A stretch of 64,000 nucleotides of DNA from Dermabacter sp. (GTDB lineage Bacteria > Actinomycetota > Actinomycetes > Actinomycetales > Dermabacteraceae): contig JAUNTX010000004.1 of assembly GCA_030538475.1 (NCBI GenBank), positions 124,001 through 188,000 on the forward strand, in the 5' to 3' direction. Positions 10,667 through 63,233 of this stretch are shown here, in pieces (within the stretch, counting starts at the first letter, position 1; each line of letters starts with the position of its first letter). The notes below the pieces were generated by a model. That model was not told the origin of the DNA. It was given only the letters and a program-made list of their open reading frames with translations, and searched no databases. Made by a program: the position numbers and the translations under genes.

Positions 10667-10688
10667 CGCCCGCCCAGACGCGGTAACG

Positions 10689-10722
10689 CACGGCCCGGAC
10701 TCCACGAGGAGCCCGGGCCGTG
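10689..10722 (+). terminator. Terminator after nrdE
   Basis: The arms CACGGCCCGG (10689-10698) and CCGGGCCGTG (10713-10722) pair perfectly over 10 bp, 23 nt after the nrdE stop. Confidence 0.75.
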
Positions 10723-10758
10723 CCCGTTTATCGGCAGAAGGCCGACGGCGACCGTCTC

Positions 10759-11687: not shown

Positions 11688-12491
11688 ATGAGTGACACGT
11701 GGCTGGGACTGGACGGCGCAGTGGTGGCCGTGACCGGGGCCGGATCGGGTATTGGACAGCACATCGCCCGCGAACTGCTCGCGGCGGGCGCCCGCGTGGC
11801 GAACCTCGATGTGAGCGTGAGCGAGGTCCGGGAGGTGAGCCCCCAGCAGCTCGAGGTGCCGTGCGATGTGACCGACGGGGCCAGCGTCGAGGCCGCGCTC
11901 GAGGCCATCCTCGCGCACTACGGCGCGCTCGATGTCGTGGTCAACAATGCGGGGATCAACCTGCCGCGTCTGCTCGTGGATACGCGGGGCACCGCCCCGC
12001 AGTACGAGCTGGATGATCGGTCGTTCGACCTCATGATGAACGTCAACGTGCGCGGTGTGTTCCACGTGGGCCAGGCCGCGGCGCGGATCTTCACGACGCA
12101 GGGCCGCGGCGTGATCGTCAACATTTCGTCCGAGGCGGGCCTCGAAGGCTCCGACGGGCAGAGCGTCTACTCCGCCACGAAGGGCGCCGTGAACTCCCTG
12201 ACCCGCTCGTGGAGCAAGGAACTGGGCAAGTTTGGCGTGCGGGTCGTGGGCGTGGCGCCCGGCATTAGCGAACCCACGGGCCTCACCTCGCCCGCCTACA
12301 ACGAGGCCCTCGCCTACACGCGCGGAGTCACCGTGGATCAGCTGACCCCCGATTACCAGAAGGTGATTCCGCTCGGGCGGCCCGGCTCCCTCACGGAGAT
12401 CGCCAACCTCGTGGTCTTCCTCGCCTCGCCCCGCGCCTCCTACATTTCCGGTACCACGTATGCCGTAACCGGGGCGAAATCCCGAGGCTGA
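11688..12491 (+). CDS. srlD: Sorbitol-6-phosphate 2-dehydrogenase (SDR family)
   Basis: A short-chain dehydrogenase that oxidises imported glucitol-6-phosphate to fructose-6-phosphate. The Rossmann motif is TGAGSGIG (16-23), followed by NNAG (86-89), the catalytic Ser147/148 and YSATK (Tyr161, Lys165). The chain is 267 residues, with a normal C-terminal SDR end (ISGTTYAVTG). The ATG at 11688 has AGGAG 6 nt upstream. The specific function is inferred from the five genes that follow, which form a complete glucitol PTS operon; the enzyme sequence alone would only say SDR. Confidence 0.85.
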   Translation: MSDTWLGLDGAVVAVTGAGSGIGQHIARELLAAGARVANLDVSVSEVREVSPQQLEVPCDVTDGASVEAALEAILAHYGALDVVVNNAGINLPRLLVDTRGTAPQYELDDRSFDLMMNVNVRGVFHVGQAAARIFTTQGRGVIVNISSEAGLEGSDGQSVYSATKGAVNSLTRSWSKELGKFGVRVVGVAPGISEPTGLTSPAYNEALAYTRGVTVDQLTPDYQKVIPLGRPGSLTEIANLVVFLASPRASYISGTTYAVTGAKSRG

Positions 12492-12555
12492 CACGAGTCA
12501 AACCACACCTGACCGGGCAGCATGAGCCGAGACACGAGAGAAAAGGAGGAGCACC

Positions 12556-14463
12556 GTGAGCTACCGCGCGAGCATTCTTGACGCCCTCGAAGCGCGCCTG
12601 AGCGCGACCGTGCCCCAACTGGCCTCGCTGCTCGGCGTGTCCACCCGCACCATCGCCAACCACATCGCCGTGCTCAACACGGAGCTCGACGGGGTGGCGC
12701 AGGTGGTGCAGGTGGGGGAGCTGCGCCGTTTGGACACGTGGGACGAGGACGCGTATCGGGCCTACCGGGCATCGCTCGAGCGGCCCGCGATCGATCTGCA
12801 TTCGGCCCAATCGCGGATGGGGCTCATCTTTCACCGGTTGGCGTCGGCGGGCCGGACGGTCCTTGTTGATGACCTCGCCCACGAACTGAGCGTCTCCCGC
12901 TCCACCGTGAACGCGGACCTTGCGAAGCTGCGCGATGCGCTTGTGCCGTACGCGCTGCTGGTGAGCGGCCGCCCCAACAGCGGCGTGGAGCTGCAGGGAC
13001 CGGAGCTGAAGATTCGGCTCGCGTACGCGGGCATGTTCTTCACCGCGCTCGAGCACGAGGCGGGGATCCCCGACGCGCTCGTGATCGAGGCGCTCGATGT
13101 GTGCGAGGCCCTCGGGCTGAGCGCCGCCGCGAGCGAATCGGTCTCCCGCTGGTTCATGGTGATGGCCTCCCGGCTCGGTGACGGCTTCGATCTTCCCGCG
13201 GGCGAGCCGACGCTAAGCCGACTCGAAACGAGCGACGCGTTCACGACCGGCCGCACCCTCGCGGGACTCGCCGCCGACTGGCTCGACATACCGGTGCAGC
13301 CCGAGGAGGCGGCGTTCATGACCCTGCCGCTCGTAGGCATGCGCGGGCCCTTCGAGCCCCAGGCGTTCGCGAGCTACCTCGAGCGCGAAGACAACGAGCG
13401 GATCCTCCAGGCCATCCTCGATCAGATCCGCGACCAGATGGGGATCGACGTGCAGGCCACGGGCCTGCGCGAAGAGTTCATGATCCACCTGGGCTTCCTG
13501 CTCAACCGGGTGCGTTTCGGGATGCAGGTGGGCCACGATGCGATCGACCAGGTGAAGTCTCGCTACCCGCTCGCCTACCAGATGGCCTCCCACGCCCGCA
13601 CCGTCATCGAGGAGAACACCGGCGCCCTGGTGGCCGATGCCGAAGTCTCCCTCCTGGCCGCCTACTTCCAGGTGTTCCTCCACCAGATGCAGGCCCACCA
13701 CGAGCGGCCCGTGCAGGTGGCGGCGGTATACCCGTTCGGCAAGGTCGAGGGCGAACTGCTCTCGTGGCAGGTGCGGGAGGCGGTGCGCGGGCTCGGCACC
13801 GTCACCGCCATCTCCGACACCCAGGTCACCCGCGAGCTGCTCGCGGCGAGCGACGTGGTCGTGGCGCGCGAGACCTGCCAGTTGCCCGATCCGCTCGAGG
13901 TCCCCGTTATCCGCGTGGGGCCGCTGTTTGACGTGGACGAACTCGGTCGAAAAATATCGACGCTCGTCATGGCCCAGAACCGGCAGGGGCCGCTCACTGG
14001 CGTCTCGTGGCTCGGCGCCCTCATCGAAGCCGACACGTTCGTGCGCCTGTCCACGACCGACTATCGCGAGGCCCTGGCCGAACTCCTCGCCACCCTCGAG
14101 GAGCGGGGCCTCGGCTCGAGCACCCTTACCGAGGCGATGTGGGAGCGCGAATCCCGCTCGACGATGCTGCTCGGCCCCACCCTCGCCTTCCCGCACGTCT
14201 CCCACCCCTCCGACACGTTCCTGCTCGCCGTCGGCGCCGCCGCCGGGAACGAGGACCACGGGGGCCTGCTCATCGTCCTGCTCGCGGTGCCGGAGGCCGA
14301 CGGCGACACGAGCCCCACCCTCGTCGGCCTCTACGAAGAGGTCATCGCGCTCGGGCACGACCCGGCAGAAGTTACCGCCCTCGCCCGCTGCGAGGACGCC
14401 CACCAGTTCCGTGCGGCCATGGCCGCACGCACCACCCACCGCTTGTCGAGAGGACAACGATGA
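12556..14463 (+). CDS. PRD-containing PTS-regulated transcriptional activator (GutR/MtlR type)
   Basis: A 635-residue regulator. An N-terminal HTH (TVPQLASLLGVSTRTIANHIAVL) and a second, Mga/HTH_11-like helix set (VDDLAHELSVSRSTVNADLAKL) are followed by two PRD modules (about 180-400), an EIIB-like segment (about 400-500) and a C-terminal EIIA-type domain with LGPTLAFPHVSHPS, whose His is the probable phosphorylation site. Such proteins sense PTS flux and activate their own sugar operon. It lies inside that operon, 64 nt after srlD, and its stop overlaps the gutM start. GTG start with AAAGGAGGAGC upstream. Confidence 0.85.
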   Translation: MSYRASILDALEARLSATVPQLASLLGVSTRTIANHIAVLNTELDGVAQVVQVGELRRLDTWDEDAYRAYRASLERPAIDLHSAQSRMGLIFHRLASAGRTVLVDDLAHELSVSRSTVNADLAKLRDALVPYALLVSGRPNSGVELQGPELKIRLAYAGMFFTALEHEAGIPDALVIEALDVCEALGLSAAASESVSRWFMVMASRLGDGFDLPAGEPTLSRLETSDAFTTGRTLAGLAADWLDIPVQPEEAAFMTLPLVGMRGPFEPQAFASYLEREDNERILQAILDQIRDQMGIDVQATGLREEFMIHLGFLLNRVRFGMQVGHDAIDQVKSRYPLAYQMASHARTVIEENTGALVADAEVSLLAAYFQVFLHQMQAHHERPVQVAAVYPFGKVEGELLSWQVREAVRGLGTVTAISDTQVTRELLAASDVVVARETCQLPDPLEVPVIRVGPLFDVDELGRKISTLVMAQNRQGPLTGVSWLGALIEADTFVRLSTTDYREALAELLATLEERGLGSSTLTEAMWERESRSTMLLGPTLAFPHVSHPSDTFLLAVGAAAGNEDHGGLLIVLLAVPEADGDTSPTLVGLYEEVIALGHDPAEVTALARCEDAHQFRAAMAARTTHRLSRGQR

Positions 14464-50524: not shown

Positions 50525-50560
50525 GGCTCCACTAATTTCGCCACACTAAGGGATGGAGAG
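50525..50560 (-). repeat. Fossil CRISPR repeat beyond the recognised array end
   Basis: Aligned with the 36-nt consensus, 25 of 36 positions agree, best at the end GGGATGGAGAG (consensus GGGACGGAGAG). It lies one spacer length (34 nt, 50561-50594) from the first recognised repeat, which supports a common origin. With 11 differences it is unlikely to work. Confidence 0.6.
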
Positions 50561-50594
50561 TCATATTCGACGTCAAGTTATCGGGCATCTTCTC

Positions 50595-52497
50595 GCCTCA
50601 ACAAAGTCCGTCCCACGAAGGGGCGGAGGGGCTCCTTCAGCTCCCGAATCCGCTCCTGATCCGCCACGCCTCAACAAAGTCCGTCCCGGGAAGGGGCGGA
50701 GAGGGCCCAGACTCGACGCGACGCCGCCGGAGGCATCTCGCCTCCACGAAGTCTGTCCCGCGAAGGGACGGAGAGACGCGCCCGCCGCCTTCCAGCGGTG
50801 AGGCATCGCCGCCTCAACGAAGTCCGTCCCGTGAAGGGACGGAAAGTCCATGGCCCGCTGGAGTGCGGGATCGAGCTTGTCCCCGCCTCAACGAAGTCCG
50901 TCCCGTGAAGGGACGGAGAGGTGAAAGGAGCCCTGGGTTCTCGCGATGACCTCGTGCCTCAACGAAGTCCGTCCGGCGAACGGACGGAGAGCTCGTGGAT
51001 CAGCCAGTCCACGTGATCGGCCGGGTCACCTCAACAAAGTCCGTTCCGCGAAGGGACGGTGAGCCGGGCTCGACGTACGGCCCCACGTCAACATTTTGCC
51101 TCAACGAGGTCCGTCCCGAGAAGGGACGGAGAGTCGGCAGATCGTGGTTCCCTTCCCCGCGTAGCGGGGGCCTCAACGAAGTCCGTCCCGTGAAGGGACG
51201 GAGAGCGTTCTGGACCACTGCATCCAGCTGACCCCGACCCGGCCTCAATGAAGTCCGTCTCGTGAAGGGACGGAGAGGTTGTCATCCATCTCGTCGGCGG
51301 CGGCCCCGATATCGCCTCAACGAAGTCCGTCCCGTGAAGGGACGGAGAGACAGCGCCGCGCTTGCGTGCGGTCGAGTGACCCCCGCCTCAAGGAAGTCCG
51401 TCCCGCGAAGGGGCGGAGAGATTCGCTCGCGAATACCTTTGCATGTGGCCAATAACGCCTCAACGAAGTCCGTCCCGTGAAGGGACGGAGAGTCAGGCAA
51501 GGGGCTGTGAGGGGCTTGCCGCTGGATGGCCTCAACGAAGTCCGTCCCGAGAAGGGACGGAGAGCCCACCGAGCGCGCCCATGAGCACGCCGAGCGCACC
51601 GCCTCAACGAAGTCCGTCCCGAGAAGGGACGGAGAGCCCACCGAGCGCGCCCATGAGCACGCCGAGCGCACCGCCTCAACGAAGTCCGTCCCGAGAAGGG
51701 ACGGAGAGGACCCCGTGGCGGACCCGGACGGCCCCGACGGACAGGCCTCAACGAAGTCCGTCCCGAGAAGGGACGGAGAGATCACACCACGGGGAGGGTG
51801 TGGATTGCCTGCCAGGCCTCAACGAAGTCCGTCCCGAGAAGGGACGGAGAGCCGTCAGTGATCGCCTTGTCGGAGGAGTTGAAGGCGCCTCAACGAAGTC
51901 CGTCCCGAGAAGGGACGGAGAGCGGAATCGGGGGGAGGTTACTTCGTGCATGATTCGGCCTCAACGAAGTCCGTCCCGAGAAGGGACGGAGAGCGTCAGA
52001 CCCCGGCGTTGCGCGCTGTGGCGGCCGTGCCTCAACGAAGTCCGTCCCGAGAAGGGACGGAGAGTTGCCCATGAGGAAATTTCCCGCGCCGTCGCCCGCG
52101 CCTCAACGAAGTCCGTCCCGAGAAGGGACGGAGAGCACCGACTCGCGTTGGAGGGCTGCCCTGGCGTCCCACGGGCCTCAACGAAGTCCGTCCCGAGAAG
52201 GGACGGAGAGGGCACCGGGACCCCGCCTTCCCTCCGGTGGTACGGGCCTCAACGAAGTCCGTCCCGAGAAGGGACGGAGAGAGGCGTCGCACAAGCTCCG
52301 AATCACCAGTGGTGGTGCCTCAACGAAGTCCGTCCCGTGAAGGGACGGAGAGGGTGCTCGAGCAACGTTACATCTTCGGCTACCGCGAGCCTCAACGAAG
52401 TCCGTCCCGTGAAGGGACGGAGAGCGGGAGTCATGCCCGCGCGCATCTGCACGCTCTCGGAGCCTCAACGAAGTCCGTCCCGTGAAGGGACGGAGTG
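50595..52497 (-). CRISPR. Type I-G CRISPR array, 27 repeats and 26 spacers
   Basis: The repeat is 36 nt; on the plus strand it starts GCCTCAACGAAGTCCGTCCC and ends AAGGGACGGAGAG, with GAG or GTG between. Repeats begin at 50595, 50668, 50740, 50811, 50885, 50956, 51028, 51098, 51170, 51242, 51314, 51385, 51457, 51529, 51601, 51673, 51745, 51816, 51887, 51958, 52029, 52100, 52175, 52246, 52317, 52389 and 52462. Spacers are 34-39 nt, mostly 35-36. The first three repeats and the seventh are the most altered, so the old end is at low coordinates and the leader is beside cas2; the transcript should run on the minus strand. The inverted repeat CCGTCCC/GGGACGG gives a 7-bp stem. Spacers 14 (51565-51600) and 15 (51637-51672) are identical. 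Because repeat plus spacer is often 72 nt, long false open frames run through the array. Confidence 0.98.
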
Positions 52498-52674
52498 CGC
52501 GGTCGATATTCTAGCGTGCTGACCAGGCTTTACAGGGGCTCTGGCGAGGGGTGTGGGTTTTCTGGTGGCGCTTCCGCCCCAATTTTTCATCTCGCAGCAC
52601 AAATGCGTCGTTGACCTGCAAGTATTCCCCGCGAGGGGTGAAGGGGCGGCGCTTGTTGACGGAGGGCTCGCGGC
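52498..52674 (-). promoter_or_regulatory. CRISPR leader region
   Basis: 177 bp between the youngest repeat and the cas2 stop, with no open frame. It includes an AT-rich tract (read on the minus strand, GATGAAAAATTGGGG) and a GC-rich segment near cas2. The promoter for the pre-crRNA and the integration signals should be here; I cannot fix the -10 and -35. Confidence 0.7.
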
Positions 52675-52977
52675 TCACACGATGAGCGGTCCGGCTTCCG
52701 TGACGTCTCGGCTCTGCCCGAGGTAGGAGAACTCCATGTCCGTCAAGGCCGCTCGAAGCCCGAGGTCGCAGACCAGCACGCTGTCCTCCCCGGTGTCTAT
52801 TAATTGCGAAACCTCGGCCTTGAGTCGCGTGAGCGCTGCCGGCAAGATGTCAACGATAAATACGGAGTACTGGATCCGGTCACCGTACTGACCGATCGCT
52901 TTAGCTACGCGGGTTCTTCTGCGGTCGTCAGGAATATCGTAGGCGATGAGGGTGCGCCTCACACGGTCGCGGATCAT
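52675..52977 (-). CDS. cas2: CRISPR-associated endonuclease Cas2
   Basis: 100 residues with the ferredoxin-like Cas2 fold. The N-terminal strand LIAYDIPDDRRRTRVAKAI carries the metal-binding Asp14; GQYGDRIQYSVFIVDI is the second conserved strand. It forms the adaptation complex with Cas1. The start overlaps the cas4-cas1 stop by 4 nt. It is the last cas gene before the leader. Confidence 0.96.
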   Translation of the reverse strand: MIRDRVRRTLIAYDIPDDRRRTRVAKAIGQYGDRIQYSVFIVDILPAALTRLKAEVSQLIDTGEDSVLVCDLGLRAALTDMEFSYLGQSRDVTEAGPLIV

Positions 52978-54593
52978 CGCACGGTGACTCCCTTGTAGCT
53001 TTGTTGGCTGCCGTCGATGACCCCAAGAACCATGCGCGCTTGAATCTCGATGGCTCGGCGCCAGGTGGTGCGGTAGCCAAAGACGGGGTGCGTGAACTCG
53101 GTAGCAACACGCCGCTCAAATGCGGCAATGAGCTTCTTCCTGCCCGCTGGCGTGAGCCGGTAGCTACCGAGGACATTGGTGAAACTGTTGGACTTCAGCT
53201 CGCCATTGTTGAGCGCGCCGATGATGGCGGCATCGACGAGCGGGGCGCGGAACTCTTCCATGAGGTCAAGAGCAAGTGCTGGCTTGTTCCTGCCGGGGGA
53301 GTGGAGGAACCCGGCACTGGGATCGAGCCCGCACGCAATGATTCCGCGCAGCACTTCTGTGAGGAGTAGCCCGTACCCGTAGTTCAGCGCGCTGTTCAGC
53401 GGATCGATAGCGCCCCGGCCCACGCGCCCGGTAAAGTCCTCCACGCATTCGGGAGGGGCTGCTGGTCCCAGAAGAGTGGTGAGCTCCCCGAAATACAGGG
53501 AAGCGCCATTGCCCTCGATGCCGAACAGCACCCGTGTGGACGTGCAGGTCTTCGCTGCACGTGCCAGGTCCCGAATCTGCTGGACGATCTCCTTGTCCCC
53601 GCCAAACCTCCGCAGGATCGTGGCCTGGTTGGATAGCTTGCTGGCCACGAACTCGCGTGCAAGGTCAATGCGGCCGTCGTGGGACTGGGCAAACTGCCGG
53701 TGGCGAGCGCTGCCGTTGGGTGCGGATGCGGTGCGTGACCAGCCGACAACCCGCCCGTAGCCCGTGCACCACACAATCGGCAGGTCCCGCCACATGAGTT
53801 CGCGCAGCAGCGCTCCGGAAACATCAACGTTGCCGTGGACCACCACAGCGAGCACCCGCTCCATGGGAATCGATGCGAGCTTTTCGTCGCCTTTGACCAC
53901 CGTGACTCGGCCCGAGGCCAGCTGCGCGCGGCTTCCCGGGGTAGTGAGGTGCAGGACGTCGCCAGCGGGATCGGGAGGCATGATCCTGCGCCGCACTTCC
54001 TGTTCTTGGCGCTCTTCGGGAAGGCACACCGCAGAATGGGAACACCGCATACACTTCGGGTCGTCGATCAGCGGCTCAGGTGCCGTGGCCGAGCTCAAGA
54101 CCGCCCGCGTAGCTTCCACGGCCCCGATGGCATTCGCGGTCGCCACCTCGTCGATCTCGATAGGAACGCGCCGGTGGTGCGTAGAGAAATACAGCTCAGT
54201 ACTCGCAACGGTGAAGCCTTGATCTTCGAGCGCCATGGCCTGCAGCGTGAGCTGGAGCCGGTTGGTATCCGAGGCCCTGGGCTCCCGTTTCACCGGAGTG
54301 GCCTTGTGCTCAATCAGCCGTACCACCGTGTCGCTCACCATTTCCACGCGGTCGATACGCCCGTGAAAGCCAAGCGCCCGGTGCCGGACATCAACGGCCC
54401 GCACGGTGGCCGCATCACGGGTCGTTGCCTCGTCCACCCTGCGGTGGGCGGCGGTCCCGTCGGCCATTTGACCCGAGTATTCCGCACGCTCGCCCGCACC
54501 CTCCAGCCACGCACGGCGCGGACAGAATTGCCAGTGCGCCACCATTCCAATGGGCACCGACACTGAATCCTCCGCGGGAGCCTCGGGAACCAT
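52974..54593 (-). CDS. cas4-cas1: Cas4-Cas1 fusion protein
   Basis: 539 residues. The Cas4 part (1 to about 205) has Cys24 (QFCPRR) and the C-terminal cluster CMRCSHSAVC (Cys181, 184, 190) for an Fe-S cluster, and RecB-type nuclease residues Asp81 (GRIDRVE) and Glu95-x-Lys97 (LIEHKAT). The Cas1 part (about 212-539) has the catalytic Glu360 (GIEGNGASLYF), His431 (GFLHSPGR) and the acidic pair Asp443/Glu446 (LDLMEEFR). It selects, trims and inserts new spacers. The fusion is a hallmark of type I-G/I-U loci. All active-site residues are present, so adaptation should be working. Confidence 0.97.
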   Translation of the reverse strand: MVPEAPAEDSVSVPIGMVAHWQFCPRRAWLEGAGERAEYSGQMADGTAAHRRVDEATTRDAATVRAVDVRHRALGFHGRIDRVEMVSDTVVRLIEHKATPVKREPRASDTNRLQLTLQAMALEDQGFTVASTELYFSTHHRRVPIEIDEVATANAIGAVEATRAVLSSATAPEPLIDDPKCMRCSHSAVCLPEERQEQEVRRRIMPPDPAGDVLHLTTPGSRAQLASGRVTVVKGDEKLASIPMERVLAVVVHGNVDVSGALLRELMWRDLPIVWCTGYGRVVGWSRTASAPNGSARHRQFAQSHDGRIDLAREFVASKLSNQATILRRFGGDKEIVQQIRDLARAAKTCTSTRVLFGIEGNGASLYFGELTTLLGPAAPPECVEDFTGRVGRGAIDPLNSALNYGYGLLLTEVLRGIIACGLDPSAGFLHSPGRNKPALALDLMEEFRAPLVDAAIIGALNNGELKSNSFTNVLGSYRLTPAGRKKLIAAFERRVATEFTHPVFGYRTTWRRAIEIQARMVLGVIDGSQQSYKGVTVR

Positions 54594-55597
54594 CAGAGCA
54601 CCTCGGCTTCCAGCGCACGGCGCTCGGGAGAACTCGGATTTTCCGACACGCTGACAGGAAAGGAGAGCACGACTGGGAAGCCAGCATCCTCCAGCCGCTC
54701 CCGCGCCGCGACCGCTTCCGGTTCAGAGATCCGGCCCTGCTTCTCTGCCTCGCCGAGAATAGTGAGGTGCGATGAGCGAAGAACTGATCGCCACCGTGCC
54801 ACGGTCACCCACCCCGTCGGGACAGGCATGAGGAGCCGGGCCTGGCGGTCCCGGTGGCCGGGAACGAAAGCGGAAGCAGTTGAGCGGGCCGCACGGTGAT
54901 GCCACATGGGCATCGCCGACATTCCCCAGAGCCCGCACCACGCCCGCGCACTGTCGGTAGGTCCGAGCGGTCCGAGGCCCAAGGACGTACGCGAGTCGGG
55001 ACTGTTCTTGCCCACGTCGTCGTTCAGATACTCTCCCGTCAGGCCGTCGATCACCTGGGCACTTTCACGGGCGGCGACGGCAGTGGCGAGGGGCAGGAGG
55101 CCGTTGGTGATGACCTCCATCCCCTTATTGCGGGTGCGCATCTCCCAGGGTGATGCACCTTCGTAGAAACGTTTCTTATCCCCGGTGGCCTGAAGCCACC
55201 ACGCCCGCTCGCCCAAGGCCAGGGTCATGTCTGATTCGAGGCCCCGAAGACCAGCCGCCACATGGTTGCGTTGTGCCAGGTACTCGGTCCAAGCGTCATC
55301 GGTGCTCGGCACCTTGGCGCGGACTGCGAAATGTGACTGCGCTGCCTCGCTCTTCGCTTGCATCCACCCGTCGGCTCCATCGGCGTGGCGGGATGCGTGC
55401 TCCCGGATGATGGCACCGACGTCTTCCGGCGAATCTCGCTCCACGCGGAGCATGGGGACGGCATCGGCGGTGTCGGTCCAGCGGCACAGTGCGTTACCCG
55501 GACCAAGGGCGTCATCCAGGATGCTTGCCGCACCGAGCAGCGCCATGTGTGAGAGCAGGATGCTGCTCGGGCCCGTGAACGTGATGTCGATACTCAT
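54593..55597 (-). CDS. csb3: Type I-G Cascade subunit Csb3 (Cas8-like)
   Basis: 334 residues. Begins MSIDITFTGPSSILLSHMAL and contains LGERAWWLQATGDKKRFYEG; length and position fit the Csb3 proteins of type I-U/I-G loci that stand in place of the larger Csx17. The role as large subunit (PAM recognition and Cas3 recruitment) is inferred from the family, not shown by motifs. It overlaps cas3 by 4 nt and touches the cas4-cas1 start. Confidence 0.75.
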   Translation of the reverse strand: MSIDITFTGPSSILLSHMALLGAASILDDALGPGNALCRWTDTADAVPMLRVERDSPEDVGAIIREHASRHADGADGWMQAKSEAAQSHFAVRAKVPSTDDAWTEYLAQRNHVAAGLRGLESDMTLALGERAWWLQATGDKKRFYEGASPWEMRTRNKGMEVITNGLLPLATAVAARESAQVIDGLTGEYLNDDVGKNSPDSRTSLGLGPLGPTDSARAWCGLWGMSAMPMWHHRAARSTASAFVPGHRDRQARLLMPVPTGWVTVARWRSVLRSSHLTILGEAEKQGRISEPEAVAARERLEDAGFPVVLSFPVSVSENPSSPERRALEAEVL

Positions 55598-58446
55598 CGC
55601 CCCTCCTGGGAAATGGTGTTGTCTGCTGCACGAAGGAGAGTCTCAAGGTACGCGGTGCCCCATATGCCCCAGGCCTGGTCTGTCGCGTCGATCAGTGCGT
55701 CCCAGAGCCCCACATCGAACAGGGCATGGGCCGACGCATGGACCTCGGCAGTCTGAGAAGGAGAGAGCAGTTGCCTCGCTGAATGGTGGAAAGTGCCGCG
55801 TCCATAGCCGTGACTGGTTCCCACGAGCCGCGTCACCAAGTCCAGGTCCGGTGTGCCCGAGGCGTGCACCATGGCAGCGGAAAGTTGCTCGTGCCGCCAG
55901 CGCGTTGGGAGGCCGGAGTTTTGGCCGTGACGCCCAAGGAATCCAGTGCCGGGTCTGCTTTTCGCCAGGAAGAGTCCCTGTTCGGCTGCCTTCCCGCCGC
56001 GCAAGAAGACCTGAAATCGGGGTTCCATCTTCCCGTCGTCATGATGGAGCCCCGCGATCTCCAGGACGCCCGCCAGGTGTTCTCCGAGCCCAATCGCTTG
56101 AGCGAACTCGCGTGCTCGCTCACCCACGTGCGCCTGGTGATTCTCGAGCAGCACGTCGTCAGTTGGGGACAGCTGGCTGATGAGCACCTCGTCGGCCGCG
56201 GGTTCGGTGATGTGGTCAATGCAGACCCAGGCAAGGGAGCGGGGATGCGACTGCGAAGGGTTGCCCGCCGTCACCTTGAATCGGCCCAGTTCCGCCTCAG
56301 TGGGCAGTTCGTCGCGGCCCAGATGGGCCGCGAACGCCTGGCCGAAACCACGGTCGATCATGGCGCCGGCGAGCGAGGTCAATGTCAGGTCTCGCTCCTC
56401 ACGAAGTAGTTCTCCCGCCGCGTCGAGAATTGCTGCCTCCAGGACTTCGTTAGTCGCTGAGGCCCGACCGAGAGCGCCGGGGCGGCTCACGAACGTGATG
56501 AAGCGGTGGGCCCGGGAGGCGTCGGGAAGCGTCGCGGGCCGCCCGGACGCGTCACGCGGATCCAGGACTTCACCGAGAGGTTGAAGGTCATCCGTCTTCG
56601 CCGACATGAGGACCCCGTGCCGTGCAGACACAGTGTCGTCCGGCAGACACACCACGTCGCCCGCGCGGAGGCCGGAACGGTCATCAATGTCCAGCCAGGA
56701 CCATTGCCCCGCGCGATACACGAGGACCGGCGTGCTCGGAAATTTTGCTCCCCACACGCTGTTTCGCAGCAGTGCCATCACTGCCCGCACGGTAGACGGA
56801 TACGTTTCATGCGGCTGCGGCGGAACCGCCGTGACCAGTGCGAGCGCCTCCTGGCGGTCCACAGGGCGGCCCATCAGCAAATCCTCGCGGGAGTCTCGGT
56901 AGGGCAGACGCCGACCGATCACGGAGACTTCCGCCGCCTCTTCCAGGTCATCGCTCAGATAGAACCCCAGCTCCGGCTGGGTGGGGAACTGTTCAGACGT
57001 GCGCGCAAGCAGGCGCACTCGAGCATCCTCGATTTCCGTAAAGGCCAGCCGACGTGGCCTGGGCAGGGGCGGGGGACTGTCGTGAATCGCCTGGGGATTC
57101 ACCCCTTCGGGCTCCGCCGCGAGAGATTGAATCCACGCCAAGCCATCCACGAGATCGTCTTCGTGATACGGGAGGGATTGCTTCGTGGTGATGGCGGCGC
57201 CGGACGGCGGAGCAAGCACGTGCATCCAGGCAAGTTCACGCCCCCCTCGACGATTCAGCCGACCCGCCCGTTGCGCGAGCGACGTGGCGGGCGCCAGGTC
57301 CGTGATGAGCGTGCCAAAGTCCAGGTCCACGCCCACTTCGATGCTCTGAGTGGCAACGTAGACGATGGGCTCGCGTTCGCCGGTGTGAAGTCCGGACTCT
57401 CGTTCCCACACGCGTTGCGGCCCAACGATGAGTGAGACGCGTTCCCCGGCAGTCTCGCTCATCGCGCGTACCTCGTTATAGACGGCGATGGCGGATTCGA
57501 CTCGATTGAGCACAATGCCCACCGGCGTCGCGCCCTCGGTGATCGCCGCCTTTGCGAGCTCTGCGATGCCGGCAACTGCCTGAGTGCGCTCGCGAGCCGT
57601 CCCCGCACCGGGGAGCCACATGCCGCCCACGTGCATCGAGATCGGCTTCGGGCGCCGCATCCGTCGCTCCAGTTCTTCATCATTCAACGGGGCGCTCAGG
57701 TCGAGCCCGGCTACCTCGCGGTCCCCGTCGGCTCCCGTGCCCTCGACCGGTGTGGCCGTTGACTCGACCACCTGCAGTGCGGGCACAAGAGCTGCGAGGG
57801 GGGATTCCGCCGCGAGGTTTGATACCCGCCTGGCCGTGGTGAGCAGTTGCCTGCTGAGGTGGGCTTCATCCACGATCAGCACCGTGTCGAAGGCCAGGAG
57901 CCCAGCCTCACGCGGTCGGGCATTCACGGTCGCGCCATAGCCGCGGAACAGGAGCCTGCTGCCGCACATGTCGGGGGTGGCGCACACAATCTGACACGCC
58001 GCGGGGGCATTGACCCAGCCGCGTTCGGGGCTCACACCACCGCGCACCTTGGTCACCACGAGTGGCTCGGAGCCGGGAGTCAGTGTGGCAAGGGCACGGG
58101 CGACGCGGTGCGTGACGGTATCGGTACCGTCGGCAAGTGCCTGGGAGAGCATGCCACGGAGGTGATCGGCCTGGTCAGCCATGTCGTCCACGAGGGCCCG
58201 CCGTGCCACTACGTGACACAGCCTGCGCGGTACTCGCGCCGCCCCAGGGGCAGCAGAAGCTGCCACGGCGAAGACGTGGATTGCGAGGACCGACGATTTT
58301 CCGGACCCCGTGGGAGCGGTGATGGCCGACGGCCATGTGCCCGTGTCAAGAACGAATGCAGCAAGGTCCCGTTGCCACGCAAAGGGTGCCGCGCCGTCGT
58401 GACACGCGGCGAACCACTCATCAAAGTCAGCGAGGGTGAGAGTCAT
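55594..58446 (-). CDS. cas3: Cas3 helicase-nuclease with C-terminal HD domain
   Basis: 950 residues. Superfamily 2 helicase first: Walker A TAPTGSGKS (43-51), DEAH box (193-196) in LIVDEAHLSRQ, motif VI SLAQRAGRLNRRG. The HD nuclease domain is at the C-terminus, with HHDDGK (801-806), RHEQLS and GTSHGYGRG. Most Cas3 proteins have HD at the N-terminus; the reversed order is a known mark of type I-G. It unwinds and degrades target DNA. Overlaps csb2 and csb3 by 4 nt each. Confidence 0.95.
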   Translation of the reverse strand: MTLTLADFDEWFAACHDGAAPFAWQRDLAAFVLDTGTWPSAITAPTGSGKSSVLAIHVFAVAASAAPGAARVPRRLCHVVARRALVDDMADQADHLRGMLSQALADGTDTVTHRVARALATLTPGSEPLVVTKVRGGVSPERGWVNAPAACQIVCATPDMCGSRLLFRGYGATVNARPREAGLLAFDTVLIVDEAHLSRQLLTTARRVSNLAAESPLAALVPALQVVESTATPVEGTGADGDREVAGLDLSAPLNDEELERRMRRPKPISMHVGGMWLPGAGTARERTQAVAGIAELAKAAITEGATPVGIVLNRVESAIAVYNEVRAMSETAGERVSLIVGPQRVWERESGLHTGEREPIVYVATQSIEVGVDLDFGTLITDLAPATSLAQRAGRLNRRGGRELAWMHVLAPPSGAAITTKQSLPYHEDDLVDGLAWIQSLAAEPEGVNPQAIHDSPPPLPRPRRLAFTEIEDARVRLLARTSEQFPTQPELGFYLSDDLEEAAEVSVIGRRLPYRDSREDLLMGRPVDRQEALALVTAVPPQPHETYPSTVRAVMALLRNSVWGAKFPSTPVLVYRAGQWSWLDIDDRSGLRAGDVVCLPDDTVSARHGVLMSAKTDDLQPLGEVLDPRDASGRPATLPDASRAHRFITFVSRPGALGRASATNEVLEAAILDAAGELLREERDLTLTSLAGAMIDRGFGQAFAAHLGRDELPTEAELGRFKVTAGNPSQSHPRSLAWVCIDHITEPAADEVLISQLSPTDDVLLENHQAHVGERAREFAQAIGLGEHLAGVLEIAGLHHDDGKMEPRFQVFLRGGKAAEQGLFLAKSRPGTGFLGRHGQNSGLPTRWRHEQLSAAMVHASGTPDLDLVTRLVGTSHGYGRGTFHHSARQLLSPSQTAEVHASAHALFDVGLWDALIDATDQAWGIWGTAYLETLLRAADNTISQEGR

Positions 58447-60035
58447 GATTCCTCCGGCCGGGTGGGGATGGGGCGGTCAACGGGCAGAAGGAGGCCGCAG
58501 CCGAGGTGGCGGGACTGCCCAAGGGCCACAATGGCGCGATCTGGCACGAGAGTGCCGAGGTCCAGTTCGGCCCTGAAAGGGTGGGGCGGGAGGGCACGAC
58601 CGCGACCTTTGCCGGGTGGGCCCGACCTACTGCCGGAACGGTGAACGAATGATCTGGGGCTGAAGCTGCGCAGGCCACGGCATCGAAATCCCAGGCCGAG
58701 TTCTTCGGCAGCTGCCCAGCGTTCCTGGGGGCGTGGCGCGTATAGCTCCGGGTGGATCTCCCGAAATACGTTTCCAAGCGACCACGCGGCCGCGACGTCC
58801 AGGTCGCTGACCCCATCGACAACGCCCGATATATGGCGTTCAGCCACCATCGCGGGAGAAGCCTCCCATGTCCGGTACGTTGCTTCCGGGACGGGCCGCC
58901 AGAACGCCTGACCGTCGAAAATCTCCATCTCCTCGGGTGCGAGGCGAAGCTGGTGATCTCGCGTGACTACTCGCTCAATGGAGGCGAGTGCCCCGGCGGC
59001 CTGCCCCAAATCGTCGGCAGTGGATTCCAACGGGATCATCACGAGCATCCTGTCCCGGCCATCCGTGAACGGGGCCGCCTCCACGTCGCCCGGCAAGAGA
59101 TGGATGGCCAGGCGATTGGCAGGCTGCTCCACCCCGGGCAAGTACGTGCCCGTGATGAGTGGAGAGGCGTCGGGCCCAAGCTTGCTCACGATGGCGCGGT
59201 GCATGGCCACGCAGACGGAAACCATGTGCTCGTCGGGGATGCTCTCGCTACCGGAGATGATCGGAAGGGCGAGGACCATGCTCCACGGCACGTCATGCAC
59301 GGGGGGATCAACAGGCTTGTAGATGGCCGACTGAAGTCTGGTCCGCGGCGGTGAGATCGCGTGCGGGCGGGCGCTCGTACCGTGCTTGTCGCTGGCGACT
59401 GATGGCAGCTTGGCGGTTCCCGCCACTCGCGTGTGCGCTTCGTCGAGTTCGGCGAGCCTACCGGGAGCGGGGACGCTTTCGCGGATCGCTCCGGCGGGAG
59501 GCCGAAGTCCGGACGAGGTATCACGCAGGTGCGTGGGCGGTGTCGTGGTCGATGATTCGCAGTGCATCAGTACCGGCGACGATGCTTCGCCGAGGTAGGG
59601 AATGTCGGCGCAGAGGATATCGATGGTCTCGACAATCTCCGGCGCTGGCTCGTCCCGCCACATCCACTTGATCGGACCACCGACGGCTGTTCCATCGCTC
59701 ATGTCTTTGCCGATCACCTTGTAATTGGTTGCCTTCCCCTCCTTGAGGAAGACGCCTTCGGCGCGATAGGCGATGAGGCGCCGACCAGGCGCGATCGGTT
59801 CCACACGGGGGAGGACCAGCCCGTCCGGCGGGTTTTCCTCCAGCCACGTCAATGCGGCGAGAGATGCTGGGGCATATGGATCGGCGGGGTTGCCTGTCGC
59901 TGTGCTCCCCTTGGCCGCGGCCTGGACGAGGGCGGAATACGCTCGACCAAAGGTGGGGATGCGCTCAGGCAGGCCCGATGGGCTATGGCCCGTATAGACC
60001 CCGAGGGGGTAGGAGGCGCTGATCGCCATGGTCAT
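58443..60035 (-). CDS. csb2: Csb2, Cas5-Cas6 fusion of the type I-G complex
   Basis: 530 residues. The N-terminal RAMP (Cas5-like) begins MAISASYPLGVYTGHSP; the C-terminal part carries a glycine-rich loop, LGQSRHLGCGLLLPV, as in Cas6 enzymes that cut repeat RNA. The protein should process pre-crRNA and hold the 5' handle. The middle contains proline-rich low-complexity segments. It starts 6 nt after the csb1 stop. Confidence 0.88.
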   Translation of the reverse strand: MTMAISASYPLGVYTGHSPSGLPERIPTFGRAYSALVQAAAKGSTATGNPADPYAPASLAALTWLEENPPDGLVLPRVEPIAPGRRLIAYRAEGVFLKEGKATNYKVIGKDMSDGTAVGGPIKWMWRDEPAPEIVETIDILCADIPYLGEASSPVLMHCESSTTTPPTHLRDTSSGLRPPAGAIRESVPAPGRLAELDEAHTRVAGTAKLPSVASDKHGTSARPHAISPPRTRLQSAIYKPVDPPVHDVPWSMVLALPIISGSESIPDEHMVSVCVAMHRAIVSKLGPDASPLITGTYLPGVEQPANRLAIHLLPGDVEAAPFTDGRDRMLVMIPLESTADDLGQAAGALASIERVVTRDHQLRLAPEEMEIFDGQAFWRPVPEATYRTWEASPAMVAERHISGVVDGVSDLDVAAAWSLGNVFREIHPELYAPRPQERWAAAEELGLGFRCRGLRSFSPRSFVHRSGSRSGPPGKGRGRALPPHPFRAELDLGTLVPDRAIVALGQSRHLGCGLLLPVDRPIPTRPEES

Positions 60036-60041
60036 TGCGGA

Positions 60042-61286
60042 TCACTCATCCGCTTCGTCGGCTGAGGCGGCACTGAGAATGCTCTGGTTGCCCAGGACTT
60101 CCAGCACCTGCCCGGACCAGTCGATGCCGGCCACCTCGCGGGCGTGGGTGAGCGCCTCGGTGAACAGTGCCAGCGCGGAGTCTTCATCCAGCGGTTCGAG
60201 TTCTTCGGAACGGCCCTGGCGCAGGTCCAAAGTCATCGTGGACGGTCCGGCTTCCACGAGTTCGCAGTTGGCGCGAATATACAGTTCCTGATCGGACAGG
60301 GTCATGGCCAGGAGGCCGTAGGCCGCCAAGAGGGCGCGGCATGCGGCATCCGCTTCGGCGTTGCCGCCGAAGCGGAGCTGACGCAGTGCGGCGAAACTGA
60401 GCACGCGGCGGCGAGTAATGGAGGAGCAGGCCACGCCTCCGAGGCCCTCCAGCGAGGGGGGAATGTGTCCGAAGCCGAGGGTAGACATCGATGATCCCTT
60501 GGCCCCGCCCTTCTTCGCTTCGCCCAGGATTTTTTCCTGAAGCTTCGGGCTCAGGTCGTCTTTCTGATCCTCGACAAGAGCTTTCACGGTCTTTTCGTCC
60601 AAGCGAATGCTCGCTGCCACGGGGTCCACGCGAGCGCCGTGGCGACGGTTTGTCGAATTATTCGGATCATTGTCCTGATCTGCGACAACACCAACGATCT
60701 CACCCGTAATTGCGGTGGTGTAGCGGGCCTGGTGCGACTTGCGGGTGGAGTCCCAAGCGCCGTAAAGAAGCGACGTGGGTGCGGCCTCGATGAGCGCCCT
60801 GGCGTTCCCGGGATTGGCGTTGCGTAGCGCGCGGTACTCGTCCGTTGCGGTGATGGGCGTGCCGCCCACCGATCCTGCGCGGATGTGTGCATCGAATGCG
60901 CGGTGGGGGAGTTCCAGGTCGCTGACCTTCATGCCGTCGTATGTCACGAGGATCGTGGGCACGCGGAGCAAGGCCAGGCCGATGGGGCTGTCCTGGTCAA
61001 GGCGGGCAGACAGTACAGCGGCTTCGTCAGCGTTGGAGACACCCTGCTTCGACTTGATCAGAACCGTCCACTTCGCCACAAACTCATTGAGCTCGGGGTC
61101 AAATTCAAGGCGGCGTTCGAACGCGTAGGCCGGCCCATTGCGATCGGTGACGCGTGCAGGCGCGATGAGAGCGCCGGGGCCGCCAGCCGGGGCGAGCGGC
61201 GTGGTGACACTCAGGGCGGATCCGCCGCCAGCCTTACAGGCGGCCAGGAGCTTCGTGAAGGTGAGCGGGGTTGTGGTGGTGGACAT
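60042..61286 (-). CDS. csb1: Csb1, Cas7-like backbone subunit of the type I-G complex
   Basis: 414 residues of the GSU0053/Csb1 (Cas7g) family. It begins MSTTTTPLTFTKLLAACKAGGG; family features include YDGMKVSDLELPHRAFDAHIR and ALIEAAPTSLLYGAWDSTRK. Multiple copies coat the crRNA spacer. AAAGGAG lies 8 nt before the ATG. It is the first of six tightly packed cas genes on one transcript. The 281-bp region upstream contains two large inverted repeats. Confidence 0.92.
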   Translation of the reverse strand: MSTTTTPLTFTKLLAACKAGGGSALSVTTPLAPAGGPGALIAPARVTDRNGPAYAFERRLEFDPELNEFVAKWTVLIKSKQGVSNADEAAVLSARLDQDSPIGLALLRVPTILVTYDGMKVSDLELPHRAFDAHIRAGSVGGTPITATDEYRALRNANPGNARALIEAAPTSLLYGAWDSTRKSHQARYTTAITGEIVGVVADQDNDPNNSTNRRHGARVDPVAASIRLDEKTVKALVEDQKDDLSPKLQEKILGEAKKGGAKGSSMSTLGFGHIPPSLEGLGGVACSSITRRRVLSFAALRQLRFGGNAEADAACRALLAAYGLLAMTLSDQELYIRANCELVEAGPSTMTLDLRQGRSEELEPLDEDSALALFTEALTHAREVAGIDWSGQVLEVLGNQSILSAASADEADE

Positions 61287-61340: not shown

Positions 61341-61420
61341 CAGGTGGTGGGTGAGTAGGCTCCTAACCGCCCACCACCTGCGTATATATGCGTAGATTTC
61401 ACAATTGATGCCTACGCAGG
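61341..61420 (-). promoter_or_regulatory. Nested inverted repeats upstream of csb1
   Basis: CAGGTGGTGGG (61341-61351) and CCCACCACCTG (61370-61380) form a perfect 11-bp stem with an 18-nt loop, inside the probable 5' leader of csb1. Overlapping it, CCTGCGTA (61377-61384) and TACGCAGG (61413-61420) form a second dyad; TGCGTA occurs again at 61389-61394. An AT-rich TATATA lies between. The first may be an RNA hairpin, the second an operator for an unknown regulator. Confidence 0.6.
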
Positions 61421-61901: not shown

Positions 61902-62408
61902 CTTGCACCAATCCCTAGCAAGTACGTAGTAAGGCTGTCCGGCTATGACATACTCTGGGGCGTCAAAGGTTGGCTTCGTTCAGGCTCGCGGGACAAGATC
62001 TGCGTGACCTCAGTCAGCTGTTCACTCCTTCTCTTCCGAGGGCGTGCTTCGTTGAGGATATGTGCTTGCTAGGGACTGCAAGTGCCCCCTCACCTCCAGC
62101 GGGCCGTGAGGCCCGCTGCTTCGTTCCTCGCGGGCGGGCCGGGCGGTTGATGTCAGGCCCGCCCGCGATCTTGTGTTTGAGGGTGGTGCTTGCCCGGCTA
62201 TCTCCGAGGCGCGCTAAGCCACTGTTGGAAACCGCCCGGGCCCCGGCCCCACTCTCGCCACACCCACCCCCACTCTTACCCCGCCCCACCAACCCCCACC
62301 CAAAGTTACCGACCACCTCGCTTGCCCCGCCCGTCGGCCCCTATAGTGCCCGATATTGAACCTGCGGAACCCCTTCGTGGGAGTCGTGTTCGGTGTTACT
62401 GTGCTGCC
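61902..62408. other. Non-coding stretch right of the CRISPR locus
   Basis: About 500 bp without a supported gene. It holds a perfect 8-bp hairpin, AGCGGGCC (62098-62105) and GGCCCGCT (62110-62117) with GTGA loop. It also holds a cytosine-rich tract (about 62240-62330). No mobile-element end or repeat pair was seen. Confidence 0.5.
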
Positions 62409-63233
62409 ATGACTGATGAGCAGTGGACCTTGGTGACGTGGATGTTGGTCGGCCTGGGCGTGTGGTGTGTTCTGGTGTTCGGTGGTGCGTTCTTGGTGCG
62501 TCGGCGGTGGTCGCGTCGGCAGCAGGAGGGGCCGGGGGCGCGGTCGATTCCGGCGCCGGTGGATCCGTGGCGTCGTTTTACGGGGTCGCTCGCGGCTGTG
62601 TATGGGCGTGTGGAGTGGGTGCGGACGCGGGGTGTGCGCCGCCGGTATTCGGAGGATCAGGTGCTGTATGGGTATGGCTCTGCCCAGGTGGTGCAGCGAC
62701 TGCTGGGGGAGTTGAAGCGTGATTGGGGGGTGAGGAAGCCTGCGCAAGCGGCCGCGGCGGTGGCGGTGGCGCCGAACATGGTGGAGGTGAGTGCGGCGCG
62801 GGTGGCGTATGCGAGGGGCGAGAGCGCCGAGGGGCTTGAGGCGCGGCTCGATGCCGTGGGCGCGCCGGAGTATGCGCGCGATGGCGTGGTCGAGGAGCTG
62901 CGGGCGCTTCGAGAGGATGGGGCTTCGTCGTTCGATGCCCGTGCGCTCGTGGGGCCGTTGGCGTTCGACGTGGCGCGCTATAGCAATCTGGTGCGCATGA
63001 CCGCGTGTGCGGGGCTCGTGACGGAGGGGCAGGCGCACGAGGCGTCGGATCGGCTCGGCGTCGCGGCCGTGGCCGCGTTTGGGAGCTGGGACGCGTTCGC
63101 TGAGGCGTATCCCGACGGACTTGCGGCCTTCACCCGCAGCGGTAATAGGCCGTATCGGAAGGCGCTGGACTGGCTGCGCACGGAGGGCAAGAGTCCGTGG
63201 GTGCGCTTCGGATGGCCCGCCGCGGGACGGTAG
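62409..63233 (+). CDS. DUF1266-domain membrane-anchored protein
   Basis: 274 residues. One N-terminal membrane helix (TLVTWMLVGLGVWCVLVFGG) is followed by an Arg-rich stop-transfer and a cytoplasmic part. The C-terminal half shows the DUF1266 pattern: FDVARYSNLVRMTACAGLVT, GQAHEASDRLG, FGSWDAFAEAYPDGLAAF. The function of the family is unknown. The ATG at 62409 is chosen because the conserved chain begins there; no strong Shine-Dalgarno is seen. A clear terminator follows. Confidence 0.8.
   Translation: MTDEQWTLVTWMLVGLGVWCVLVFGGAFLVRRRWSRRQQEGPGARSIPAPVDPWRRFTGSLAAVYGRVEWVRTRGVRRRYSEDQVLYGYGSAQVVQRLLGELKRDWGVRKPAQAAAAVAVAPNMVEVSAARVAYARGESAEGLEARLDAVGAPEYARDGVVEELRALREDGASSFDARALVGPLAFDVARYSNLVRMTACAGLVTEGQAHEASDRLGVAAVAAFGSWDAFAEAYPDGLAAFTRSGNRPYRKALDWLRTEGKSPWVRFGWPAAGR

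What the first reader, a model, noticed from the sequence alone, without database searches (positions are those of the whole stretch)
50595..61286. Complete type I-G CRISPR-Cas locus of the Csb3 variety
Csb1, Csb2, Csb3, Cas3 (helicase before HD), Cas4-Cas1 fusion and Cas2 are all intact with active-site residues. There is no Csx17. Type I-G is among the less studied type I systems, and the Csb3 branch is studied even less.
Basis: partly seen in the sequence, partly recalled or inferred. Interest (0 to 1): 0.6.

Follow-up and report, generated by a model that had tools for sequence, protein, structure and literature searches.

The report
This is a complete, ordinary-looking bacterial CRISPR immune system of the uncommon I-G type in which the usual large targeting subunit (Csx17) is replaced by a half-size protein, Csb3, that matches only the front half of Csx17; a related system is already used for genome editing in a probiotic Bifidobacterium.

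Summary
Window 50525-61286 (minus strand) carries csb1, csb2, cas3 (helicase before HD), csb3, a cas4-cas1 fusion and cas2, then a CRISPR array of 27 clear 36-nt repeats plus a degenerate 28th. Profiles identify each gene, every catalytic residue checked is present, and no csx17 exists in the 2.5-Mb genome. Csb3 genes from about 45 other loci, nearly all Actinomycetota, sit in almost the same operon, so this is a new member of a known branch. It is not unstudied: the Csb1/Csb2/Csb3 system of Bifidobacterium lactis is active and used for editing. Two points go beyond the finding. First, the Csb3 profile aligns along its whole length with only the N-terminal Cas8-like domain of Csx17 (E about 1e-6; controls negative), not with its bridge and Cas11-like C-terminus; no small-subunit gene fits in the operon. 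Second, spacers from four Csb3-type systems match actinophages next to 5'-TAC/TAT in 13 of 17 cases, agreeing with the published Bifidobacterium TAN motif and differing from TTN of Csx17 systems. The window's own PAM is undetermined: its single plausible target, a Brachybacterium conjugative-plasmid gene, is flanked by TTT/TTC.

The parts
60042..61286 (-). csb1 (Cas7g backbone subunit, 414 aa)
   Evidence: TIGR02570 above cut-off, PF09617 E 5e-31, PADLOC Cas7g; carries a roughly 35-40 aa insertion (residues ~222-263) conserved in the Csb3 branch and absent from Csx17-branch Csb1
58443..60035 (-). csb2 (Cas5-Cas6 fusion, pre-crRNA endonuclease, 530 aa)
   Evidence: TIGR02165 E 6e-61 full length; catalytic His510 in GQSRHLGCGLL invariant in 44 homologues of both branches
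55594..58446 (-). cas3 (I-G type, helicase then HD, 950 aa)
   Evidence: TIGR02621 E 4e-182; Walker A K50, DEAH 193-196, motif VI, HD H802/D803, H852, H879, D942; insertion 649-725 found in Csb3-branch Cas3 only
54593..55597 (-). csb3 (Cas8-like large subunit, 334 aa)
   Evidence: PADLOC PDLC01374 E 2e-64; 44-sequence alignment A3; AF2 pLDDT 90, pTM 0.92; homologous to Csx17 N-domain
52974..54593 (-). cas4-cas1 fusion (539 aa)
   Evidence: TIGR00287, TIGR00372, PF01867, PF01930 above cut-off, NF049935 E 1.5e-139; active-site residues present
52675..52977 (-). cas2 (100 aa)
   Evidence: PF09827 E 3e-18, PADLOC Cas2g E 3e-37; D14 present
52498..52674 (-). leader region between cas2 and the array
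   Evidence: repeats are cleanest at this end and most degenerate at the far end; inference
50595..52497 (-). CRISPR array: 27 repeats of 36 nt, 26 spacers of 34-39 nt (mostly 35-36); repeat CTCTCCGTCCCTTCACGGGACGGACTTCGTTGAGGC
   Evidence: repeat folds into an 8-bp hairpin and ends with TTCGTTGAGG, a tail common to Csb3-branch repeats
50525..50560 (-). degenerate terminal (28th) repeat, with a 34-nt spacer at 50561-50594
   Evidence: 25/36 identity at correct spacing; 0 of 20,000 random positions reach it
50992..51027 (-). spacer 21, the only one with a plausible target (conjugative-plasmid gene of Brachybacterium, 30/36, flank TTT; homologue in another genome of the family, 30/36, flank TTC)
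51565..51672 (-). two identical adjacent spacers (12 and 13) with the repeat between them, a tandem duplication

Best explanation
[quoted passage not shown] Likely workings: the array is transcribed on the minus strand from the leader beside cas2. Csb2 (Cas5-Cas6 fusion) cuts each repeat a few bases 3' of its hairpin with His510, leaving an 8-nt handle (GTTGAGGC), and stays on the crRNA 3' end. Several Csb1 copies coat the spacer. Csb3 is the large subunit: a single-domain Cas8 equivalent to the N-terminal half of Csx17, sitting at the PAM-proximal end and recruiting Cas3. Cas3 then unwinds and degrades the target. Cas4-Cas1 with Cas2 adds new spacers. Shown here: gene identities, intact active sites, gene order, the repeat hairpin, Csb3-Csx17 N-domain homology, and a TAC/TAT motif next to targets of other Csb3-type systems. 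Inferred: expression, subunit placement, PAM reading by Csb3, Cas3 recruitment, and the PAM of this particular system.
For: Profile matches for all six proteins; active-site residues conserved; near-constant operon order csb1-csb2-cas3-csb3-cas4/1-cas2 in about 45 other loci; Csb3- and Csx17-type Cas3 form two separate, fully supported groups; Csb3 versus Csx17 profile comparison Prob 89-92%, E 8e-7 to 3e-6, covering Csx17 3-376 of about 720, with reversed, 12 column-shuffled and 12 unrelated-profile controls all at 5% or less, and no match to the Csx17 C-part; AF2 model of Csb3 pLDDT 90 with best PDB match 7tr6_C of type I-A Cascade, prob 0.95; Csb3-type spacers hit actinophages with 5' TAC/TAT in 13 of 17 spacers; the B. 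lactis Csb1/2/3 system works in vivo with PAM TAT (PMC12915315).
Against: No expression or interference data. Only one spacer of this array has a plausible target, at 83% identity, and its flank is TTT/TTC rather than TAC/TAT. The structural match to 7tr6_C is weak globally (TM 0.33) and its identity as Cas8a was reached by elimination, not read from the entry: Cas7a of that complex has 336 residues, close to the 333 of chain C, but the related Cas7a structures 4reg, 3ps0 and 9cp1 are not among the 50 best Foldseek matches.
Confidence: 0.92

Rival explanations
1. The locus is intact by sequence but silent or decaying in this strain, a relic no longer taking up or using spacers.
For: Degenerate repeats at the trailer end; two loop variants among the repeats; only one plausible target for 26 spacers; absent from the other 46 genomes of its family.
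Against: All six genes open with every active-site residue checked; the leader-proximal repeats are nearly identical, as expected of recent additions; few targets are expected since phages of this genus are hardly represented in the collections (inference).
Confidence: 0.06
2. Csb3 is not a Cas8 but a helper of Cas3, as the NCBIfam name 'Cas3-extension family' (NF049934) suggests; the effector would have no large subunit.
For: NF049934 matches 34 of 44 Csb3 proteins; csb3 always follows cas3; no clear PDB homologue by sequence.
Against: Profile homology to the Csx17 N-terminal domain with clean controls, fold match to type I-A Cascade, PADLOC label Cas8g, and mutual replacement of csx17 and csb3 in otherwise similar gene sets.
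Confidence: 0.07
3. The Csb3-Csx17 similarity is convergence or an alignment artefact, and Csb3 is an unrelated subunit occupying the same genetic slot.
For: Only 13% identity along the alignment; the confident core is the first 60 residues (N-domain alone); 8b2x_M (Csx17 of the solved Cascade) is not among the 50 best fold matches.
Against: E 8e-7 to 3e-6 against 5% probability or less in every control; alignment collinear over the whole length, ending where the Csx17 N-domain ends (381 in PMC9638904).
Confidence: 0.1

Closest known systems
Type I-G system of Bifidobacterium animalis subsp. lactis (Csb1, Csb2, Csb3; PMC12915315)
   Same: Same genes including csb3 and the cas4-cas1 fusion, no csx17 mentioned, 36-nt repeat, spacers near 35-36 nt, single array.
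   Different: Different genus; its PAM is 5'-TAT-3', whereas the one plausible target here is flanked by TTT/TTC.
Type I-G Cascade of Thioalkalivibrio sulfidiphilus (Csb2, Cas7, Csx17/Cas8g, Cas3; PMC9638904, PDB 8b2x)
   Same: Csb2 with C-terminal catalytic His, Cas7 backbone, I-G Cas3, repeat hairpin with 8-nt handle.
   Different: Large subunit is 720-aa Csx17 with bridge and Cas11-like C-terminal domain; here 334-aa Csb3 matches only its N-domain. PAM TTN. Csx17-branch Cas3 and Csb1 (actinobacterial ones compared here) lack the insertions seen in the Csb3 branch.
Mycobacterial I-G loci csb1-csb2-cas3-hypothetical-cas1-cas2 (M. heckeshornense, M. hassiacum; PMC10333696)
   Same: Same gene set with one unassigned protein; in M. 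heckeshornense in the csb3 position (inference).
   Different: The authors left that protein unidentified; M. hassiacum gene order differs; the proteins were not compared here.
Type I-A Cascade Cas8a (PDB 7tr6)
   Same: Best fold match of the Csb3 model (prob 0.95), similar length.
   Different: TM only 0.33; type I-A has a separate Cas11a, and no cas11 gene is found here; chain identity by elimination.

Membership tests
Type I-G CRISPR-Cas | csb2 (Cas5-Cas6 fusion, TIGR02165) | tested here: met
   E 6e-61, full length; catalytic His conserved
Type I-G CRISPR-Cas | csb1 / Cas7g (TIGR02570, PF09617) | tested here: met
   above curated cut-offs
Type I-G CRISPR-Cas | Cas3 of I-G type, helicase before HD (TIGR02621) | tested here: met
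   608 bits against cut-off 400; motif order
Type I-G CRISPR-Cas | cas4-cas1 fusion and cas2 | tested here: met
   NF049935 at 466 bits is below its cut-off of 560, but both domains pass their own cut-offs
Type I-G CRISPR-Cas | CRISPR array with 36-nt hairpin repeat | tested here: met
Csx17-type I-G | csx17 (Cas8g1, TIGR04113) | tested here: not met
   no match in the whole genome at E up to 10
Csb3-type I-G | csb3 between cas3 and cas4-cas1 | tested here: met
   PDLC01374 E 2e-64; same position in nearly all other loci
Csb3-type I-G | NCBIfam NF049934 (type I-G, Cas3-extension family) | tested here: inconclusive
   34 of 44 relatives match, this protein does not
Csb3-type I-G | 5'-TAN-3' PAM | tested here: inconclusive
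   13 of 17 spacers in four other Csb3-type systems; for this array one target family only, flank TTT/TTC
Cas8 large-subunit superfamily (Csb3) | homology to a known Cas8 | tested here: met
   profile match to the Csx17 N-domain with negative controls; fold match to type I-A Cascade
Functional adaptive immunity | interference and spacer uptake in cells | not testable with these tools
   needs experiment

The most novel reading that the evidence does not exclude
The Csb3 branch is an effector without a small subunit: Csb3 is the Cas8 half of Csx17 without the bridge and Cas11-like bundle, no cas11 gene exists, and the missing surface along the crescent is supplied by the branch-specific insertions in Csb1 (about 35-40 aa in every copy) and/or Cas3 (about 60-75 aa). 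Branch and PAM would go together: TAN with Csb3, TTN with Csx17.
Probability: 0.3. Interest if true: 0.5.

Novelty: new member of a known kind. Interest (0 to 1): 0.33.

Why it matters
As a locus it adds one more intact Csb3-type I-G system, in a family (Dermabacteraceae) where 1 of 47 searched genomes has it. The comparison it prompted is more useful: it ties Csb3 to the N-terminal Cas8 domain of Csx17, suggests a type I effector with no Cas11-like part, and gives a phage-derived TAC/TAT motif for Csb3 systems in Gordonia and mycobacteria. If borne out, Csb1+Csb2+Csb3+Cas3 (about 6.7 kb of coding DNA) would be a compact type I machine.

Tried and rejected
Spacer targets for the window: phages, plasmids, the family's genomes, 396 genomes of the order and eight 17-20 nt scans of IMG/VR. 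Only spacer 21 gave a plausible target. Repeated weak hits of spacers 12/13 (a Streptomyces phage tape-measure gene 29/36, several chromosomal genes) were rejected as look-alike GC-rich coding sequence with scattered mismatches and no shared flank. Hits spanning repeat and spacer were rejected. The Rothia hit (closest relative) was rejected: mismatches at the 5' end. L049, L019 and L017 arrays gave no phage match. Csb3 against BFVD gave nothing. PF09609 does not detect this Csb2; TIGR02165 does. A separate cas11 gene was considered: 232 of 242 gaps between cas genes are 30 nt or less, so there is no room. Genome-wide file analysis was not available.

Full report
Check of the observation. Six open, abutting genes lie on the minus strand at 52675-61286, in the order csb1, csb2, cas3, csb3, cas4-cas1, cas2, followed by a CRISPR array. 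Profile searches identify each: Csb1 (TIGR02570 above cut-off, PF09617), Csb2 (TIGR02165, E 6e-61), Cas3 of I-G type (TIGR02621, 608 bits against a cut-off of 400), Cas4-Cas1 (TIGR00372, TIGR00287, PF01867, PF01930), Cas2 (PF09827), and Csb3, seen only by PADLOC's PDLC01374 (labelled Cas8g, CAS-I-U; E 2e-64). Alignments with relatives show the active-site residues in place: Csb2 His510 in a GQSRHxGxGLL loop whose His and glycines are invariant, Walker A and B and HD residues of Cas3, the four cysteines and D/E/K of Cas4, E360/H431/E446 of Cas1 and D14 of Cas2. The C-terminal His of Thioalkalivibrio Csb2 (H503) was shown to be catalytic (PMC9638904). csx17 is absent from the whole 2.53-Mb genome, while the same model finds 12 of 396 genomes of the phylum.

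The array. Read on the minus strand, the repeat is CTCTCCGTCCCTTCACGGGACGGACTTCGTTGAGGC. There are 27 clear copies at 50595-52497, spacers of 34-39 nt (mostly 35-36), and degeneration towards low coordinates, which puts the leader next to cas2. A 28th, degenerate copy at 50525-50560 matches 25 of 36 bases at the right spacing, which none of 20,000 random places did. The repeat folds into an 8-bp hairpin with 12 nt behind it, consistent with Csb2 cutting a few bases past the stem to leave an 8-nt handle, as in Thioalkalivibrio (PMC9638904). The repeats of 26 Csb3-type loci keep the hairpin through different sequences and share the tail TTC(A/G)T(T/C)GAGG.

Relatives. The Csb3 profile finds 2 of 396 genomes across the phylum, 9 of 396 in the order, and only this one of 47 in the family, pointing to acquisition by transfer (inference). 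The family is Dermabacteraceae: a plasmid of Brachybacterium avium is part of one of its genomes. A scan of 84,980 species genomes gave 41 loci, in Actinomycetota and two Chloroflexota MAGs. Csb3-encoding loci share the order csb1-csb2-cas3-csb3-cas4/1-cas2, with few exceptions (one with the adaptation genes upstream and inverted, some lacking them), and 232 of 242 gaps between genes are 30 nt or less. In a Cas3 tree the Csb3-type and Csx17-type systems are two separate, fully supported groups; the window groups with Rothia kristinae and a second genome of that family.

What Csb3 is. An AF2 model from 44 sequences has pLDDT 90 and pTM 0.92. Its best PDB match is chain C of the type I-A Cascade 7tr6 (prob 0.95, E 9e-3, TM 0.33). 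That chain is most likely Cas8a: Cas7a of the same complex has 336 residues, but the close Cas7a structures 4reg, 3ps0 and 9cp1 are not among the 50 best matches, as they should be if chain C were Cas7a. This is elimination, not a reading of the entry. Independently, the Csb3 profile aligns along its full length with residues 3-376 of Csx17 (Prob 91.7%, E 7.7e-7; repeated at 88.6%, 2.6e-6). Reversed, column-shuffled and unrelated-profile controls stay at 5% or below, and the Csx17 C-part gives nothing. In Thioalkalivibrio the Csx17 N-terminal region is 1-381, followed by a bridge (382-479) and a Cas11-like region (480-720), and its N-terminal domain was itself reported to resemble Cas8a2 (PMC9638904). 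So Csb3 is best read as the Cas8 half of Csx17 alone. NCBIfam's name for most of the family, 'Cas3-extension family' (NF049934, 34 of 44 members), misses this. The most conserved stretch, GASxWEMxxRNxG (residues 147-159), is also the least confident part of the model, as expected of a loop that orders on binding a partner or DNA (inference).

What replaces the missing half. No extra gene fits in the operon. Csb3-branch Csb1 carries a conserved insertion (residues ~222-263; median 42 residues in that region against 7 in the Csx17 branch) and Csb3-branch Cas3 one before the HD domain (residues 649-725; median 62 against 3). Whether these take over the Cas11 role is untested.

PAM. Arrays of two Gordonia, one Mycolicibacterium and one Mycolicibacter system of the Csb3 type match known phages. 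Over 17 spacers the three bases 5' of the protospacer are TAC in 12 and TAT in one; the rest are CAC, TCT, CAG and TTC. This agrees with TAN/TAT for Bifidobacterium type I-G (PMC7284854, PMC12915315) and differs from TTN for the Csx17 system (PMC9638904). Many of the matched phage genes are conserved proteins, so some TAC triplets may be tyrosine codons; they occur in several genes, phages and hosts. For the window itself only spacer 21 has a plausible target, a gene beside the conjugation genes of a Brachybacterium avium plasmid (30/36, flank TTT; BLAST E 0.05) with a homologue in another genome of the family (30/36, flank TTC). TTT/TTC may be one phenylalanine codon in related genes, so this is a single, weak observation.

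How it most likely works. As a type I system: Csb2 makes and caps crRNAs, Csb1 coats them, Csb3 sits at the PAM end and brings in Cas3, Cas3 degrades the target, Cas4-Cas1-Cas2 acquires spacers. Gene content, active sites and homologies are shown; the steps are inferred from Thioalkalivibrio (PMC9638904) and B. lactis (PMC12915315).

Novelty. A new member of a known branch. The Csb3-Csx17 N-domain link and the TAC/TAT motif outside Bifidobacterium were not found in the papers that could be searched, but that library is partial, PADLOC already labels the family Cas8g, and PMC9638904 mentions three size variants of the I-G large subunit, so the first point may be partly known to specialists.

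Noticed in passing
window 51565-51672: Two adjacent identical spacers (12 and 13) with their repeat: a tandem duplication inside the array.
   Followed up: partly
window 50595-52497: Two loop variants of the repeat: the three leader-proximal repeats have TTCAC, the next eleven TTCTC, older ones are mixed.
   Followed up: no
window 61341-61380: Perfect 11-base inverted repeat (CAGGTGGTGGG ... CCCACCACCTG) in the space upstream of csb1, not followed by a T run; possibly an operator for the cas operon.
   Followed up: no
L138 (G492:C2): An actinomycete genome outside this family has an array whose repeats resemble the window's (GCCTCAACGAAGTCCGTCCCCGTAGGGCGGAGCCAG), yet the Csb3 profile did not report it in the order search.
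   Followed up: partly
M. heckeshornense and M. hassiacum loci described in PMC10333696: The unassigned 'hypothetical protein' in these mycobacterial I-G loci is probably Csb3.
   Followed up: no
L044 (Mycolicibacterium frederiksbergense), array 12194-14220: The array of this Csb3-type system matches 827 phage records, mostly mycobacteriophages (capsid, tape measure, holin, antirepressor and others): a good natural test bed for I-G interference.
   Followed up: yes
L055 (Actinoplanes regularis), 10067-10747: A second, truncated csb3 with a cas4-cas1 fragment, a decayed I-G locus, in a genome that also carries a complete one (L039).
   Followed up: no
window 62190-63233: DUF1266 protein next to the cas operon, absent from the other three genomes of the genus; function unknown.
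   Followed up: partly
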